From Bacillota bacterium (GTDB lineage Bacteria; Bacillota; Clostridia; Saccharofermentanales; Fastidiosipilaceae): a stretch of 40,665 bases of DNA. This document shows, piece by piece, positions 1 to 40,665 of the stretch. Under the pieces are notes generated by a model. It saw nothing but the letters and a program-made list of their open reading frames with translations. It was not told the DNA's origin and made no database searches. Both the position numbers and the translations under genes were made by a program. Where the stretch lies: the NCBI GenBank assembly GCA_030055235.1, contig JASGUW010000021.1, positions 1-40,665 of the forward strand, given 5' to 3'. Position 1 is the stretch's first letter; each line of letters begins with the position of its first letter.

Positions 1-3
1 CAA

Positions 4-80
4 ATCCACTCAACAAGAGGTATCATCCTTCTTCTTCACTCTATTCACGTTTGCTCTATTCACGCTCTCTTGAGTGGATC
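4..80. repeat. Imperfect inverted repeat at window start
   Basis: The sequence ATCCACTCAA-CA-AGAG near position 4 is answered by CTCTTGAGTGGAT ending near 80, giving a 13-bp stem with a two-base bulge around a loop of roughly 48 bases. It lies just before the first partial hairpin-repeat unit. Its function is unknown; it may be the edge of an element cut by the window. Confidence 0.4.
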
Positions 81-104
81 TGCCTATACCTACAATACAG
101 GATG

Positions 105-205
105 CTGTCCACCCCTGGCCAGAAATCGGGGTTTGTGCCCAGGTTCGCGGGCACATACGGCACTTTTGGGCCAGTCCCTGGACAAATCTCTCGATATTGC
201 CCCGA
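105..205 (+). repeat. Partial 61-bp hairpin-repeat array (families A/C)
   Basis: About one and a half units. TGTCCA-cccc-TGGCCA (106-121) is a spacer hairpin. GTTTGTGCCC / GGGCACATAC (131-158) is the main hairpin, followed by a short T-tract and a second spacer hairpin GGGCCA / TGGACA. The last part (191-203, CGATATTGCCCCG) is a broken family-C arm. It shows the same left and right arms as the arrays at 6884 and 15640, so it is a decayed or truncated member of that system. No F block was found beside it. Confidence 0.7.
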
Positions 206-262
206 AGCCAGCACGAAACATAGAAAATCAGCCGTACAGTCCAAAGAGAGAGGATGCCGCAA

Positions 263-5364: not shown

Positions 5365-5876
5365 TGGCTGTCGGGGAGGTCGGGGCTGGCGGGGAGGTCG
5401 GGGCTGTCGGGGTTGTCCTGGCAGTCGGGGTTGGCCGGGAGGTCGGGGCTGGCGGGGAGGTCGGGGCTGTCGGGGTTGTCCTGGCTTTCGGGGTTGTCAG
5501 GGCTTTTGTAGCCGTCGAGTTTTTCCTGACCGTCGAGCTTGGTAGAGTTGTTGTAGCCGTCGAGCTTGTCGTAGCGTGTGCTTTTGCCGCGGGCTTTGGC
5601 GACCGGATACTTCCGCTCGTTGATGGCGAGTTTTTCGCGCATGATGGTGTCGGGGTCCAGACCCAGCTTCCAGGTCAGCATATGGGTATAGATCAGGACA
5701 TCAGCGATCTCCTCCTGTACTTCGGAGAGATCCGCGTCGTCCGTCCACTGATAGTGCTCGAGCAGTTCGGCGGCCTCAATGGCGATGGATTTTGCCAGAT
5801 TGGCCGGAGTGTGGAATTGTTCCCATTCGCGCTCAGCGACGAAACGCTCTATCCAGCTCTTTGTGTCTTCCTTCAA
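5361..5876 (-). CDS. MazG-like nucleotide pyrophosphohydrolase with repeat tail
   Basis: A predicted NTP/dNTP pyrophosphohydrolase of the all-alpha MazG superfamily. The body shows the expected helices and acidic metal-binding pattern: EAAELLEHYQW and EVQEEIADVLIY (ExxE..ExxD), then NERKYPV. Members hydrolyse (d)NTPs to monophosphates and pyrophosphate and clear damaged nucleotides. The usual protein ends near KARGKS; here a further ~60 residues follow, rich in SPDLPA / NPDS units encoded by a GC-rich minisatellite (5366-5510). I choose the TTG at 5876 because GGAGG lies 10 bases upstream; an in-frame ATG at 5924 lacks a ribosome site. The stop overlaps the next gene by 4 bases. Confidence 0.88.
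   Translation of the reverse strand: MKEDTKSWIERFVAEREWEQFHTPANLAKSIAIEAAELLEHYQWTDDADLSEVQEEIADVLIYTHMLTWKLGLDPDTIMREKLAINERKYPVAKARGKSTRYDKLDGYNNSTKLDGQEKLDGYKSPDNPESQDNPDSPDLPASPDLPANPDCQDNPDSPDLPASPDLPDSQ
5366..5510 (-). repeat. Coding minisatellite in MazG-like tail
   Basis: Short direct repeats (core GGTCGGGGCT / GGTTGTCC on the plus strand) encode alternating SPDLPA and NPDSQD-like units at the C-terminus of the pyrophosphohydrolase. The repeat runs right up to the start codon of the downstream DUF2075 gene, so copy changes would move the coupled ATGA junction without breaking it only if they keep frame. Confidence 0.8.
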
Positions 5877-6883: not shown

Positions 6884-7133
6884 TCTGGCCAATTTTTTCG
6901 TTCCTGCCCGGATTTCGGGGCACAAACGGCCTTTTTTGGCCAGCTGTGGCCAATTTTTTCGTTCCTGCCCGGATTTCGGGGCACCAGCGCAATTTTTGTC
7001 CATCCTTGGCCAGAAATCGGGGTTTGTGCCCCGGTTCAGGGCACAAACGGCCTTTTTTGGCCACCCGTGGTCAATTTTTTCGTTCCTGCCCCGGTTTTGG
7101 GGCACCAGCGCAATTTTTGTCCACCCCTGAGCA
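6884..7133 (+). repeat. 61-bp two-hairpin array, family A
   Basis: Four tandem units of 61 bp. Each has a main hairpin (TGCCC..GGGCA core with loops of about 6-8), a T5-T6 tract, then a spacer hairpin of TTGGCCA or TTGTCCA with TGGCCAA or TGGTCAA and a 4-base loop. Two different left arms (CGTTCCTGCCC, GTTTGTGCCC) and two right arms (GGGCACCAGCG, GGGCACAAACG) are combined along the array. The array sits between divergent genes, about 240 bases before the FAD oxidoreductase gene. Confidence 0.9.
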
Positions 7134-7382: not shown

Positions 7383-8966
7383 ATGACCAAACTGACCTGC
7401 GACGTCGCCGTTATCGGCGGCTCCCTCGGTGGCATTGCCGCCACACTCGCCCTGCTGCGCCAGGGCCGCCGCGTCATCCTCACCGAAGAGACCGACTGGC
7501 TCGGCGGCCAGGCCACCAGCCAGGGCGTCCCACCCGACGAGAACCGCCGCATCGAGGACGTCGCCGGCACCCGCTCCTACCTCGCCTGGCGGGAGGCCGT
7601 CCGCGACTACTACCGCCGTCACTACCCGCTCTCGGACACAGCCCGCCACGACCCCCGCCTCAACCCCGGCGGCGGCACCGTCTCCGCCCTCTGCCACGAA
7701 CCCCACGTCTCCGCCCGCATCTTCGACGACCTGCTGGCTGCTGCGGTCAGCCTCGGGCGGCTGGTCATCCTTCGCAAAACTATCCCCATCTCAGCCACCG
7801 TTCATGACCATCACATCACATCGGTCACCGTCCGCTCCCAACATCAGGACTACGAGCTCCTTGCCGCCTACTATCTGGATGCCACGGAAATAGGTGACCT
7901 CCTGCCCCTTACCGGCACCGCCCATGTCACCGGCTCAGAGGCCCGCTCCGACACCGGCGAGCTCCACGCCGTCGACGTAGCCGACCCGCTCGACATGCAG
8001 TCGATTACCTGGTGCTTTGCCATGTCACGCGGCGGCACGGATGCCGACCGTATCGCGAAGCCCGCCGCCTACGAACACTGGAAGCGCCACCTGAGTCCCT
8101 TCTGGCCCGGCTCCCAGCTCTCCTGGTCTTACTCCCATCCCATCACGCTGAAGACCATCGAAGGTGCCATCGAGCCCCGCACCGGCACGAACGATCTCTG
8201 GCGCTACCGCAAGATCCTCGGCCAGGAGCACTATGACTTTCCCGTCGATGAGATCACGCTCGTCAACTGGCCGCAGAACGACTACTGGTTTGGCAATATC
8301 ATCGGCGAAACACCCGATGTGCATGAGCAGAGCCGCCGTGAAGCCCGCGAGCTATCCCTCTGCTGGTTCTACTGGCTCCAGAACGAGGCCCCGCGCCCCG
8401 ACGGCGGCCGTGGCTATCCCGACCTGCGCCTGCGCGGCGATGTCCTCGGTACGGAGGATGGCCTGGCCAAATACCCCTACATCCGCGAATCCCGCCGCCT
8501 CCTCGCCCTTGAACGCGTCACCGAAGCCGACATCGGCTACGAGATGCGCCGTGCCGCCACTGATCCCGACAGCCCCGTCCATGCCGTCCAGTTCTCCAAC
8601 AGCGTCGGCATCGGCTACTACCGCATCGACCTGCATCCCAGCACCGGCGGCCGCAATTACATTGACATCGAGAGCCTGCCCTTCCAGATCCCGCTTGGTA
8701 TTCTTATTCCCCGTGAAACCCGGAATCTTCTGGCTGCTGCCAAGAACGTCGGCACCACCCATATCAGCAACGGCTGCTACCGTCTGCACCCGGTTGAATG
8801 GAACATCGGAGAGGCGGCGGCTTATGTGAGTGATTTATGTCTGCGAAAGCAAAGCTCCCCCCAGCAGCTCTGGTCCGACCCCGCGGCCGTGCGTGAGCTG
8901 CAGCAGACGCTTCGCGCCGCCGGCGTTCCGCTGGAGTGGCCGGAGGAGCTGCGCGCCGGTCTCTAG
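7383..8966 (+). CDS. FAD-dependent oxidoreductase (FAD_oxidored family)
   Basis: A 527-residue flavoprotein. The N-terminus has a Rossmann dinucleotide fold, VAVIGGSLGGIAATLALLRQ (residues 7-26), followed by the ribose-binding acidic end of strand 2 (TEETDWLGGQ), both hallmarks of the PF12831-type FAD-dependent oxidoreductases. A late FAD-contact region includes GTTHISNGCYRLHPVEWNIGE (about 459-479). Many relatives lie in carbohydrate or secondary-metabolite loci, but the substrate is unknown. AGGAGG lies 10 bases before the ATG. It stands alone, with repeat arrays on both sides. The stop codon is followed at once by CGGGACTTGCC, a motif shared with two other gene ends in this window. Confidence 0.9.
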   Translation: MTKLTCDVAVIGGSLGGIAATLALLRQGRRVILTEETDWLGGQATSQGVPPDENRRIEDVAGTRSYLAWREAVRDYYRRHYPLSDTARHDPRLNPGGGTVSALCHEPHVSARIFDDLLAAAVSLGRLVILRKTIPISATVHDHHITSVTVRSQHQDYELLAAYYLDATEIGDLLPLTGTAHVTGSEARSDTGELHAVDVADPLDMQSITWCFAMSRGGTDADRIAKPAAYEHWKRHLSPFWPGSQLSWSYSHPITLKTIEGAIEPRTGTNDLWRYRKILGQEHYDFPVDEITLVNWPQNDYWFGNIIGETPDVHEQSRREARELSLCWFYWLQNEAPRPDGGRGYPDLRLRGDVLGTEDGLAKYPYIRESRRLLALERVTEADIGYEMRRAATDPDSPVHAVQFSNSVGIGYYRIDLHPSTGGRNYIDIESLPFQIPLGILIPRETRNLLAAAKNVGTTHISNGCYRLHPVEWNIGEAAAYVSDLCLRKQSSPQQLWSDPAAVRELQQTLRAAGVPLEWPEELRAGL

Positions 8967-8984: not shown

Positions 8985-9105
8985 TCGAGTCGGTGCCCTG
9001 GCTGGAGCCAGTGCTCTGGTTCGAGTCGGTGTCCTGGCTGGAGTCGGTGCCCTGGCTGGAGCCGGTGTTCTGGCTGGAGTTGGTGCCCTGGCTGGAGCCG
9101 GTGAA
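8985..9105. repeat. 18-bp minisatellite downstream of FAD oxidoreductase
   Basis: About six to seven tandem copies of a GGTGCCCTGGCTGGAGCC-like unit with point changes. It lies just after the stop codon and can be read in several frames, but none has a start with a ribosome site. Probably slippage-prone non-coding DNA. Confidence 0.85.
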
Positions 9106-9117
9106 TGTCGGACCGCG

Positions 9118-9190
9118 GGTGAGCATGCCAGGAGGGTGGAGGGCGGTTGGCATGGGCCCTGCGCGCCGTTGCTGCAAGGCGCGCAGGGCC
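9118..9190 (+). repeat. Start module of 71-bp array B1, with strong hairpin
   Basis: 9118-9146 (GAGCATGCCAGGAGGGTGG core) resembles the reverse complement of 22071-22094 beside array B2. Then GGCCCTGCGCGCC and GGCGCGCAGGGCC (9155-9190) form a perfect 13-bp stem with a 10-base loop, leading into the first repeat unit. Confidence 0.65.
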
Positions 9191-9735
9191 AAAACAGCGC
9201 GAAATCCAAAAAACGATTTGGATTACAGGCTACTTTGGCCACAGAAGGCCTGATTCTGGTCAAAATAGCGTGTAATCCAAAAAATGATTTGGATACGAGG
9301 CTACTTTGACCACAAAGGGTCTGTTTCTGGTCAAAACAGCGTGTAATCCAAAAAACGATTTGGATAGCAGGCTACTTTGACCACAAAGGACCTGTTTCTG
9401 GTCAAAATAGCGTGTAATCCAAAAAACGATTTGGAAACGAGGCTACTTTGACCACGAAGGGCTTGATTCTGGTCAAAACAACGTGTAATGGCAAATTCGA
9501 TTGCCATTACAGCCTAAGTTGACCACAAAGGGCCTGTTTCTGGTCAAAACAGCGTGAAATGGCAAATTCAATTGCCATTACAGCCTAAGTTGACCACAGG
9601 AGGCCTGTTTCTGGTCAAAACAGCGTGAAATGGCAAATTCGATTGCCATTACAGCCTAAGCTGACCACGGAGGGCCTGTTTCTGGTCAAAACAGCGTGTA
9701 ATCCAAAAAACGATTTGGATATCAGGCTACTTTGA
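9191..9735 (-). repeat. 71-bp two-hairpin array, family B (B1)
   Basis: About eight tandem units with an exact 71-bp spacing (anchor GGCTAC or GCCTAA at 9299, 9370, 9441, 9512, 9583, 9654, 9725). Each unit holds hairpin 1 (TTGACCA..TGGTCAA, loop about 15) and hairpin 2. Hairpin 2 uses ATCCAAA / TTTGGAT in five units and ATGGCAA / TTGCCAT in three (9485-9652), so both arms change together. The array lies between the convergent FAD oxidoreductase and LysM genes. The minus call follows array B2, where the T6-containing form reads on plus. Confidence 0.93.
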
Positions 9736-9795
9736 CCACGGAGAGTCGCGCACGCCGCTATGCAGCGTGCAGGCCGCTGCACAGCGCGCAGGGGC
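9736..9795 (+). repeat. End module of array B1
   Basis: After the last hairpin-1 start, the sequence GACCACGGAGAGTCGCGCACGCCGCT leads into a GC-rich segment ending GCGCGCAGGG. Array B2 has the matching end (reverse complement of 21210-21250), so both arrays stop with the same module. Confidence 0.7.
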
Positions 9796-15639: not shown

Positions 15640-15876
15640 AGATGACGATATTGCCCTGTAGATCGGGCAATATCGGACACTTTGGCCAAGGGGTGGACAA
15701 AAAACGCGCTGGTGCACCGGAATCGGGGCAGGAACGAAAAAATTGACCAGGGCTGGCCAAAAAAGGCCGTTTGTGCCCGCAAATCTGGGCACAAACCCCG
15801 ATTTCTGGCCAGGGGTGGACAAAAAATGCGCTGGTGCCCCAAAACCGGGGCAGGAACGAAAAACTTGTCCACATCT
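15640..15876 (-). repeat. 61-bp two-hairpin array, families A and C
   Basis: One family-C unit (ATTGCCC..GGGCAAT, 15651-15674) followed by three family-A units with spacer hairpins at 15682, 15743 and 15804 (61-62 bp apart). Read on minus, left and right arms alternate: CGTTCCTGCCC with GGGCACCAGCG, GTTTGTGCCC with GGGCACAAAC, then the first pair again. The array sits between the convergent AraC-type and MntP genes. Confidence 0.9.
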
Positions 15877-15880
15877 ATTT

Positions 15881-16494
15881 GCTCCAACTGGCGGTGCGGC
15901 ACCGCCGCTTTCTTTCTTCATTCTTCATCACAAAGCGGCGGCAAACGAAACGAATCGATAGGAAACAGTTGTACGGGCGACACTTGCAGCGGCATCCCTA
16001 ACGGGGAGGAACGGATTAGCTGGCCACAGCTGGAAAACAACGCATTTGTGTCTGGCTACTTGAGTTAGATCTCCAATGCTCACATTGTGATTCACTCCAA
16101 GGAAGGCCAGTGTTCCAAAGAAGGCCAAAGACCAAGAAAAATGGAAAGATACTTATGTGTGCTCAAGCAGCTGGTAAGGGTTCATTGAAGAAGTCTGTGA
16201 AACACAATGGAGCGGAGAGGGATGTAATTTGTAGTTCCCTGTGATGCAGCGCGTGAGACAAGTACATTCTGTAGACATTGCCAGGCGAAGCCAGCCTTCA
16301 GTGTCGATATGCTTTCAGTGTCGATAAGCCATCAGCGTCAGTCTGAACCGCTATACACCACATGCAGAACTGTCAAAGCACCTGATTCCCAAACACCCGA
16401 TTCCCAAGCGCTTGATTCCAAAGCACCCGATTCCAGAGCGCCTGGGCCGCTTCCTGTTCCATGACCCGGGGCAGTCCCGCTGGAGAAAGTCCAG
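15881..16494. other. Intergenic stretch before the MntP gene end
   Basis: No gene was recognised. About four copies of an 18-19-bp unit (AAGCACCCGATTCC) lie at 16375-16445. GGAAGGCC / AAGAAGGCC repeats lie at 16100-16128. On minus, after the MntP stop, comes a short hairpin CTGGA..TCCAG and then GCGGGACTG, a rearranged form of the stop-adjacent motif. Confidence 0.5.
16375..16445. repeat. 18-19-bp minisatellite
   Basis: About four degenerate tandem copies of a unit like AAGCACCCGATTCC(C/A), non-coding, between convergent genes. Confidence 0.7.
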
Positions 16495-21156: not shown

Positions 21157-21250
21157 TGGTCAAAAGAGGTTGAAATGGTAATCGTATTTGTTATTACACG
21201 CTGTTTTGACCCTGCGCGCCGTGCAGCGGCGTGCGCGACCCTTCCGTGGT
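21157..21250 (+). repeat. End module of array B2
   Basis: Holds a variant unit with GTAAT..ATTAC arms (21178-21197) and a GC-rich insert inside hairpin 1 (CTGCGCGCCG..CGGCGTGCGCG), matching on the reverse strand the end module of array B1. Confidence 0.65.
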
Positions 21251-22012
21251 CAAAGTAGCCTGAAATCCAAATCGTTTTTTGGATTGGACGCTGTTTTGAC
21301 CAGAATCAAGGCTTCCGTAGTCAAAGTAGCCTGGTATCCAAATGCTTTTTTGGATTGGACGCTATTTTGACCAGAAACAGGCCTTCCGTGGTCAAAGTAG
21401 CCTGATATCCAAATGGTTTTTTGGATTGGACGCTGTTTTGACCAGAAACAGGCCCTCGGTGGTCAAAGTAGCCTGAAATCCAAATGGTTTTTTGGATTGG
21501 ACGCTATTTTGACCAGAAACAGGCCTTCTGTAGTCAAAGTAGCCTGGTATCCAAATGGTTTTTTGGATTGGACGCTATTTTGACCAGAAACAGGCCCTTT
21601 GTGGTCAAAGTAGCCTGCTATCCACATGGTTTTTTGGATTGGACTCTGTTTTGACCAGAATCAGGCCGTCTGTGGTCAAAGTAGCCTGATATCCAAATGG
21701 TTTTTTGGATTGGACGTTGTTTTGACCAGAATCAGGCCGTCTGTGGTCAAGATGAAGAGAAATACAAAATCCTTTTTGTAAAACTCCCGATCTTGACCAG
21801 GAACCGGTCCTTCGTGGTCAAAATGAGGAGAAATACAAAATCCTTTTTGTAAAACTCTCGATCTTGACCAGAAACAGGCCTTCCGTGGTCAAGATGAAGA
21901 GAAATACAAAATCTTTTTTGTAAAACTCTCGATCTTGACCAGAAACAGGCCGTCTGTGGTCAAGATGAAGAGAAATACAAAATCTTTTTTGTAAAACTCT
22001 CGATCTTGACCA
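21251..22012 (+). repeat. 71-bp two-hairpin array, family B (B2)
   Basis: About eleven units at an exact 71-bp step (GGATT anchors at 21281, 21352, 21423, 21494, 21565, 21636, 21707). The first eight use hairpin 2 ATCCAAA / TTTGGAT and hairpin 1 with a stem of up to 13 bp (GCTATTTTGACCA). The last units (from 21735) keep the 71-bp length but carry TACAAAA / TTTTGTA and an ATCTTGACCA / TGGTCAAGAT stem. It is in the opposite orientation to B1, between the divergent regulator and folT. Confidence 0.93.
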
Positions 22013-22202: not shown

Positions 22203-22303
22203 GACAGAGTAGACGAGTCGCGTCAAGTGCCGGGACATGGGAAGTCGGTCCCGGACGAAGGCCTGCATACACAAGGCCGCGGTGGCTCGTCGCGTCCGCT
22301 GTC
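22203..22303 (+). ncRNA. Tetrahydrofolate (THF) riboswitch
   Basis: Matches the class-I THF aptamer: a closing stem GACAG / CTGTC, the conserved AGAGTAGACGA..CGCGTCAAGTG strand, a GGGA-type hairpin arm, GGACGAAGGCC, and the late GGCCGCGGTGG..CGTCCGC strand that returns to the start. It binds reduced folates and lowers expression of folate transport or synthesis genes when folate is plentiful. It stands 87 bases before the ECF folate transporter gene, the typical target. Confidence 0.92.
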
Positions 22304-28744: not shown

Positions 28745-28912
28745 TGTGTAAAACTTCGCTATTGCCCGATCCGCGGGGCAATCTCGGCTTTTTTGTTCAC
28801 TCCCTGGTCAAATTCTTCGCTATTGCCCGGCCCGCAGGGCAATCTCGGCTTTTTTGCACACTTCCTGTACAAATTCTTCGCTATTGCCCGATCCTCGGAG
28901 TATCCGCTGGGA
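28745..28912 (+). repeat. 61-bp hairpin array, family C
   Basis: About two and a half units: ATTGCCC..GGGCAAT hairpins at about 28760, 28821 and 28882 (61 bp apart), each followed by CTCGGCTTTTTTG and a spacer TTGTTCA..TGGTCAA. Same orientation as 40465-40665 read on minus. Confidence 0.9.
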
Positions 28913-40191: not shown

Positions 40192-40346
40192 GGAGTTGTG
40201 TAAGAGGAAAGATCGACACAACTCCAAAAGTTGGCAAATCCGCCCTCAGTTTTGACAAAAAATCGAGTTGTGTCAGGAAAAGGTGACACAACTCGAAAAG
40301 TTGGCAAATCCGTCCTCGGTTTTGACAAAAGGTCGAGTTGTGTCAG
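40192..40346 (-). repeat. 70-bp hairpin array, family D
   Basis: Two hairpins GAGTTGTGTCA..TGACACAACTC style (one perfect pair at 40265-40294) and an orphan arm (40335-40346), at 70-bp steps (GACACA at 40215 and 40285; GAGTTG at 40265 and 40335). Spacer pairs are TTGGCAAA with TTTTGACAA. Read on minus it matches 28557-28650, again next to an F block. Confidence 0.9.
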
Positions 40347-40396
40347 CGAAAGAAACTGAATCAAAAACGGGTTGCAAATAGATTAGACGTCGCTAA

Positions 40397-40450: not shown

Positions 40451-40464
40451 GGGCTATAAAAGTC

Positions 40465-40665
40465 GGTATTGCCCCTGGAATCGGGCAATATCGAAGTTTT
40501 TGACCAGGGAGTGGACAAAAATCACGGTATTGCCCCTGGAATTGGGCAATATCGAAGTTTTTGACCAGAGAGTGGACAAAAATCACGGTATTGCCCCTGG
40601 AATCGGGCAATATCGAAGTTTTTGACCAGGGAGTGGACAAAAATCACGGTATTGCCCCTGGAATC
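40465..40665 (-). repeat. 61-bp hairpin array, family C, running off the window
   Basis: At least three identical-length units (ATTGCCC..GGGCAAT, spacing 61) with spacer TTGACCA-gggag-TGGACAA, whose stem holds a conserved A-A mismatch. Units are almost identical, suggesting recent expansion. The array continues past the window end. Confidence 0.93.

What the first reader, a model, noticed from the sequence alone, without database searches (positions are those of the whole stretch)
6884..7133. Family A mixes two left and two right arms
Left arms CGTTCCTGCCC and GTTTGTGCCC and right arms GGGCACCAGCG and GGGCACAAACG are combined along the array (three of the four combinations occur here). The second left with the second right pairs fully; the first left with the first right pairs with a CC/CC internal loop. 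At 15640 the two pairings alternate strictly. This suggests shuffling by recombination at the GGGC core, or two interleaved repeat types.
Basis: seen in the sequence. Interest (0 to 1): 0.7.

Follow-up and report, generated by a model that had tools for sequence, protein, structure and literature searches.

The report
Modular 56-bp hairpin repeat arrays
Between its genes this uncultured Bacillota bacterium carries hundreds of tandem short palindromic repeats of almost fixed length whose two halves usually match but are now and then swapped, and a jumping gene always lands at one exact spot in them; this is an unusually regular new variety of the mosaic repeats known from other bacteria.

Summary
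Family A uses two left and two right arms. In 781 kb of this genome, 150 units have matching arms (118 L1R1, 32 L2R2) and 12 are hybrids (9 L1R2, 3 L2R1; Fisher p=3e-22). Across the linkers the arms combine freely. Hybrids are clean half-unit chimeras. In one orthologous array a sister species has a plain L1R1 unit where this genome has L1R2. The strict alternation is not general, but L2R2 never adjoins L2R2 (0 seen, 4.5 expected). Family A is one of four families (A-D) with one architecture: a 56-58 bp dyad, TGGNCA...TGNCCA, with spacers of exactly 4, 5, 14 or 15 bp. A relative in another genus shares it (57 bp, spacer 15). An IS110-family element sits at the same linker position (TGNCCA-N4/5-TGGACA|) in 20 of 20 copies. 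No RAYT gene was found. Stems show no compensatory change; array strand is random relative to genes. Best reading: NIME/BIME-like intergenic mosaic repeats, with arms exchanged by rare recombination or template switching. What first spreads them is unknown.

The parts
6886..6942 (+). A unit, hybrid L1R2 (57-bp body TGGCCA...TGGCCA)
6947..7002 (+). A unit, matched L1R1 (56-bp body)
7007..7063 (+). A unit, matched L2R2 (57-bp body)
   Evidence: terminator-like hairpin 7022-7048
7068..7123 (+). A unit, matched L1R1 (56-bp body)
6943..6946 (+). 4-bp spacer GCTG between TGGCCA and TGGCCA; the other spacers of this array are 7003-7006 (TCCT) and 7064-7067 (CCCG)
15694..15871 (-). A array of three units, L1R1 L2R2 L1R1 when read on the minus strand (bodies 15694-15749, 15754-15811, 15816-15871), spacers 4 bp
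15646..15675 (-). B-type hairpin next to the A array
15880..16050 (-). E module, the conserved flank of A arrays with the GCCGCCGCTTT hairpin
9257..9738 (-). D array (bodies of exactly 56 bp, spacer 15): D1 and D2 cores mixed in one array
21158..22012 (+). D array with D2, D1 and D3 cores (56-bp bodies, spacer 15)
28754..28891 (+). B array (period 61 = 56+5), beside C units and an F module
40193..40351 (-). C array (GAGTTGTGTCA hairpin, period 70 = 56+14)
40464..40665 (-). B array running off the contig end
1..104 (-). left end of an IS110-family element inserted in an array linker exactly after TGGACA; the contig starts inside it
105..210 (+). A2 unit and B-type remnant next to the IS110 end

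Best explanation
Family A is part of a superfamily of intergenic mosaic repeats. Each unit is a 56-58 bp quasi-palindrome, TGGNCA-(left half)-core-(right half)-TGNCCA, and units stand head to tail with a fixed spacer. Shown: arms are coupled within the unit and independent across the linker; hybrids are half-unit chimeras joined in the right part of the shared core; arrays differ in presence, unit number, arm type and even family between two species at the same gene gaps. Inferred: arrays grow, shrink and mix through unequal exchange, gene conversion or replication template switching. Exchange at linkers only reshuffles whole units; rarer exchange at the short core (about 11-19 bp shared by A1 and A2) makes L1R2 and L2R1. 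Shown: an IS110-family element uses the linker half-site as its insertion site. Inferred: the arrays act as tolerated landing sites, and matched halves are kept because units are copied whole or because a dyad-binding protein or selection on copying ability favours them.
For: Arm coupling 118/32 against 9/3, p=2.6e-22, and uncoupled junctions p=0.10. Chimera structure and loop length. Orthologous array E-L1R1-L1R1-L1R1 in G001 against E-L1R1-L1R2-L1R1-partial in G000; an array with six units in G001 whose site is empty in G000; a D array in G001 where the window has the A array. Body and spacer lengths by family. Within-array identity exceeds between-array identity, clearly for D1, D2 and B and slightly for A1. 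In family D 100 of 103 units have matching cores; the other three are variants or degenerate. IS110 left end at the same place in 20/20 copies. 0 of 150 arrays lie inside genes; convergent gaps are enriched (26/69 against 55/455, p=8e-7).
Against: Only one orthologous locus shows an arm change, and its direction is not polarised (A2 was not seen in the G001 stretches, so gain in G000 or loss in G001 are both open). The shared core is short for RecA-type recombination. A2 never adjoins A2, which free exchange at linkers does not predict. Recombination was not observed directly; both genomes are short-read MAGs. No source of new array sites was identified.
Confidence: 0.7

Rival explanations
1. 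REP/REPIN-type elements spread by a RAYT (Y1 tyrosine transposase) that recognises the single-stranded hairpin.
For: High copy number, extragenic palindromes, hairpins with conserved unpaired positions; D1 contains GTAG near the foot of its inner hairpin.
Against: PF01797 finds no RAYT: one decayed IS200 transposase in G000 and nothing in G001. Head-to-tail units instead of the inverted doublets that define REPINs; no GTAG or CGTC tag in A, B or C.
Confidence: 0.1
2. The arrays are transcription terminators or other RNA elements.
For: Several units end in a GC hairpin followed by a T run; 14 terminator-like sites against 9.0 (sd 2.7) in shuffles; enrichment in convergent gaps.
Against: Orientation relative to tandem genes is random (9 same, 15 opposite, p=0.31). 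Stems show no compensatory change (double changes 79, expected 90) and no clear G-T over A-C excess (206 against 166; in A1 it is reversed, 91 against 110). Tandem copies up to about 14 are not needed for termination.
Confidence: 0.15
3. Arrays of binding sites for an unknown dimeric DNA-binding protein, such as a chromosome-organising factor; the fixed dyad length and spacers that differ by one helical turn are set by that protein.
For: Body 56 bp in four families with different arms, 57 in another genus; spacers 4/5 and 14/15 only. TGGNCA ends do not covary (69 Watson-Crick, 65.6 expected) and unpaired positions are as conserved as paired ones, as for sequence recognition.
Against: No such protein was identified; common descent of the four families could also explain the shared length; array sites are often absent in the sister species, so no given site is essential.
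Confidence: 0.3
4. The hybrids are assembly chimeras.
For: MAG in 242 contigs; about half of the arrays (63 of 128) lie next to a contig end.
Against: A1 and A2 share at most about 19 bp at the core, below the smallest k-mers usually used in assembly (inference), so such a join is not expected. The hybrids at 6886 and in L125 lie inside contigs between unique flanks. Another genus has units with non-matching inner arms as its main type.
Confidence: 0.05

Closest known systems
Neisserial intergenic mosaic elements (NIME: dRS3 + RS units; PMC3898611)
   Same: Intergenic arrays in which longer units alternate with a short dyad (6-bp inverted ends, dRS3 = ATTCCC-N8-GGGAAT); the dyad is a landing site of a mobile element; recombination between copies is proposed.
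   Different: Different sequences (no dRS3 in the window); here the unit is a palindrome of near-fixed length (56-58 bp) instead of 30-160 bp, and the spacers take four exact values.
REP/BIME/REPIN elements (PMC3733652, PMC3116915, PMC2817692)
   Same: Many extragenic palindromes, several families per genome, hot spots for IS110-type insertion, enriched between convergent genes.
   Different: No RAYT, no general GTAG/CGTC tag, longer unit, head-to-tail instead of alternating orientation.
IS110-family elements that target REPs (IS621, ISPpu9, ISPpu10, ISPa11; PMC1525189, PMC11208160)
   Same: DEDD transposase (PF01548 and PF02371); one exact insertion point inside a palindromic repeat in 20/20 copies.
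   Different: New target: the TGNCCA-N4/5-TGGACA linker; the bridge RNA was not identified here.
Tandem GI-GIII REP arrays of P. fluorescens SBW25 (PMC3116915, section 'Tandemly repeated REP sequences')
   Same: Two repeat types alternating at fixed spacing in tandem.
   Different: Only a few loci there, with REP sequences; here hundreds of short arrays and hybrid units.

Membership tests
REP/BIME/REPIN | GTAG or CGTC tag at the foot of a 20-40 bp palindrome | tested here: not met
   Consensus of A, B and C lacks it; only D1 (and part of D2) contains GTAG
REP/BIME/REPIN | Cognate RAYT (Y1 transposase) in the genome | tested here: not met
   PF01797: one decayed IS200 in G000, none in G001; MAGs 94-96% complete
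REP/BIME/REPIN | Neighbouring repeats in alternating or inverted orientation | tested here: not met
   A units of one array run in the same direction
NIME | dRS3 sequence ATTCCC-N8-GGGAAT | tested here: not met
   0 matches with 1 mismatch allowed
NIME | Array of longer units separated by a short dyad with 6-bp inverted ends that is a mobile-element target | tested here: met
IS110 target repeat | Insertions at one fixed position of the repeat | tested here: met
   20/20 left ends after TGGACA; about 57% of such half-sites have A, so 20/20 by chance is about 1e-5
CRISPR or TIGR guide arrays | Unique spacers between constant repeats | tested here: not met
   Only scattered positions and the short spacers vary, with a few recurrent variants
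Intrinsic terminator or RNA element | Strand fixed relative to genes, compensatory changes in the stem | tested here: not met
Rfam family | Match at the gathering score | tested here: not met
   Only a THF riboswitch at 22203-22303

The most novel reading that the evidence does not exclude
The 56-58 bp dyad with spacers quantised at 4/5 and 14/15 bp is the footprint of an undescribed dimeric DNA-binding or recombining protein of this family of Bacillota; arm families diverge while the geometry is held, and half-unit swapping changes which partner halves meet.
Probability: 0.2. Interest if true: 0.75.

Novelty: new variant of a known kind. Interest (0 to 1): 0.5.

Why it matters
Intergenic mosaic repeats are usually described as loose mixtures. 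Here four arm families and a fifth in another genus keep one near-fixed dyad length, so geometry and sequence can be separated as constraints. The hybrids give a simple readout of recombination inside arrays, and the IS110 element with one exact site offers a new natural target for bridge-RNA work. The repeats also explain why this genome breaks into 242 contigs.

Tried and rejected
RAYT as the mover: not found. IS200 remnant between a C and a B array (L170): an ordinary decayed IS. Linker as a compensating RNA stem: no covariation. Stem covariation within families: none. E module as a transposon end: its flanks grade into further repeat modules with no clear boundary or terminal inverted repeats. 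Pattern search in 195 further genomes of the class: 1 chance match; in 75 genomes of the order other than G000, G001 and G004 only background counts. Paper search for the MAG's source or a description of these repeats found nothing.

Full report
Check of the observation. The four units at 6886-7123 are L1R2, L1R1, L2R2 and L1R1, so three of the four arm combinations are present. The array at 15694-15871, read on the minus strand, is L1R1-L2R2-L1R1.

Arm table. In 61 stretches (781 kb of 3.42 Mb) I found 118 L1R1, 32 L2R2, 9 L1R2 and 3 L2R1 units in chained arrays (Fisher p=2.6e-22). Junctions across the linker (R1-L1 77, R1-L2 28, R2-L1 30, R2-L2 4) are not coupled (p=0.10). L2R2 never stands next to L2R2: 0 seen, 4.5 expected, P=0.0014. 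A looser scan gave 12 L1R2 and 3 L2R1; its count of 58 for L2R2 includes both strands. A2 was not seen in 342 kb of G001.

Nature of the hybrids. A hybrid has the complete left half of one type, including its half of the linker, and the complete right half of the other. All 12 L1R2 have 8-nt loops and all 3 L2R1 have 7-nt loops, as the left parent (matched L1R1 122 of 124 with 8; matched L2R2 mixed), so the switch lies right of the loop in TTTCGGGGCAC. Since A1 and A2 share at most about 19 bp there, assembly chimeras are unlikely (inference).

Comparison with the sister species. Among 36 syntenic gaps, four carry repeats in at least one genome. One array is shared: G001 has E-L1R1-L1R1-L1R1, G000 has E-L1R1-L1R2-L1R1 and a further partial unit, at about 80-90% flank identity. 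A six-unit array of G001 is absent at the same gap in G000. Upstream of the FAD-dependent oxidoreductase (7383-8966), where the window has its A array, G001 has a D array. The fourth case is only a weak C-like match. So site occupancy, unit number, arm type and family all change on the scale of species with about 87% nucleotide identity.

Common architecture. Four families fill the gaps: A (A1, A2), B, C and D (D1, D2, D3). Measured from TGGNCA to TGNCCA, bodies are 56 bp in A1 (91 of 104), B (11 of 13), C (3 of 3), D1 (59/59), D2 (22/22) and D3 (13/13), and 57-58 in A2. Spacers are 4 (A), 5 (B), 14 (C) and 15 (D), with hardly any other value. The C values rest on few units, since many C linkers have degenerate ends. 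Outside arrays neither distance stands out. D1 and D2 can share outer arms but differ in both core arms together; 100 of 103 D units have matching cores. In G004, another genus of the same family, bodies are 57 bp (30 of 33) with spacer 15 and inner arms that mostly do not match. Elsewhere in the order or class the patterns are at background.

What kind of constraint. Single units fold well as DNA (z -2.8 to -5.2). Yet stems show no excess of double changes (79 against 90 expected), and G-T and A-C deviations are similar (206, 166). The two N positions of the linker do not covary. In A1 nearly all positions, paired or not, are 96-100% conserved while a few (4, 16, 25, 27, 30, 46, 53) vary freely. 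This looks more like sequence recognition than like RNA structure, though recent amplification could add to it. Arrays lie outside predicted genes (0 of 150 inside; genes predicted with a simple hexamer caller), favour convergent gaps (26 of 69 against 55 of 455, p=8e-7) and ignore gene strand (9 same, 15 opposite).

A mobile element that uses them. G001 contig 29 holds an IS110-family element (428-aa DEDD transposase, PF01548 and PF02371). Its left end, GCATCCTGTATTG, follows TGNCCA-N4/5-TGGACA in 20 of 20 copies where the flank could be read, 19 of them at contig ends of G000; two or three of the upstream half-sites are degenerate. The right end...GACACAATAGGG, is followed by the AAAATTGCG side of the target. 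Aligned ends are mostly 99-100% identical between the species. Window 1-104 is one such end. This parallels IS110-type elements in REPs (PMC1525189, PMC11208160) and the phage target role of dRS3 in NIMEs (PMC3898611).

Conclusion. These are NIME/BIME-like mosaic repeats with an unusually rigid geometry. Arm mixing is real, rare and consistent with exchange inside a short shared core. What first placed arrays in the gaps remains unknown; no RAYT is present in the data.

Noticed in passing
window 1-104; L158 4846-6713: IS110-family element with one exact insertion point in the array linkers; 24 further end matches in G000, nearly all at contig ends
   Followed up: yes
window 5366-5506 and 8987-9103: 18-bp-period tandem repeats at the ends of predicted genes, coding for low-complexity tails; similar 42-63 bp-period repeats in other contigs
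   Followed up: no
window 22203-22303: THF riboswitch (RF01831, 79.8 bits) just after the D array
   Followed up: no
window 9160-9190, 9745-9790 and 21215-21245: GC-rich inverted repeats of the type TGCGCGCC...GGCGCGCA bordering D arrays
   Followed up: no
L157 17976-18319, L152 6611-6836 (G001): A further 72-bp-period repeat family (GGTGCAAAATTTCAAGG...CTTGAAATTCTGC) seen in G001
   Followed up: no
L103, L143, L148 flanks of A arrays: Another shared flank module (CTGATGG[TC]RCACATGG...ATCGATTCCATGTCA) after R2 ends
   Followed up: no
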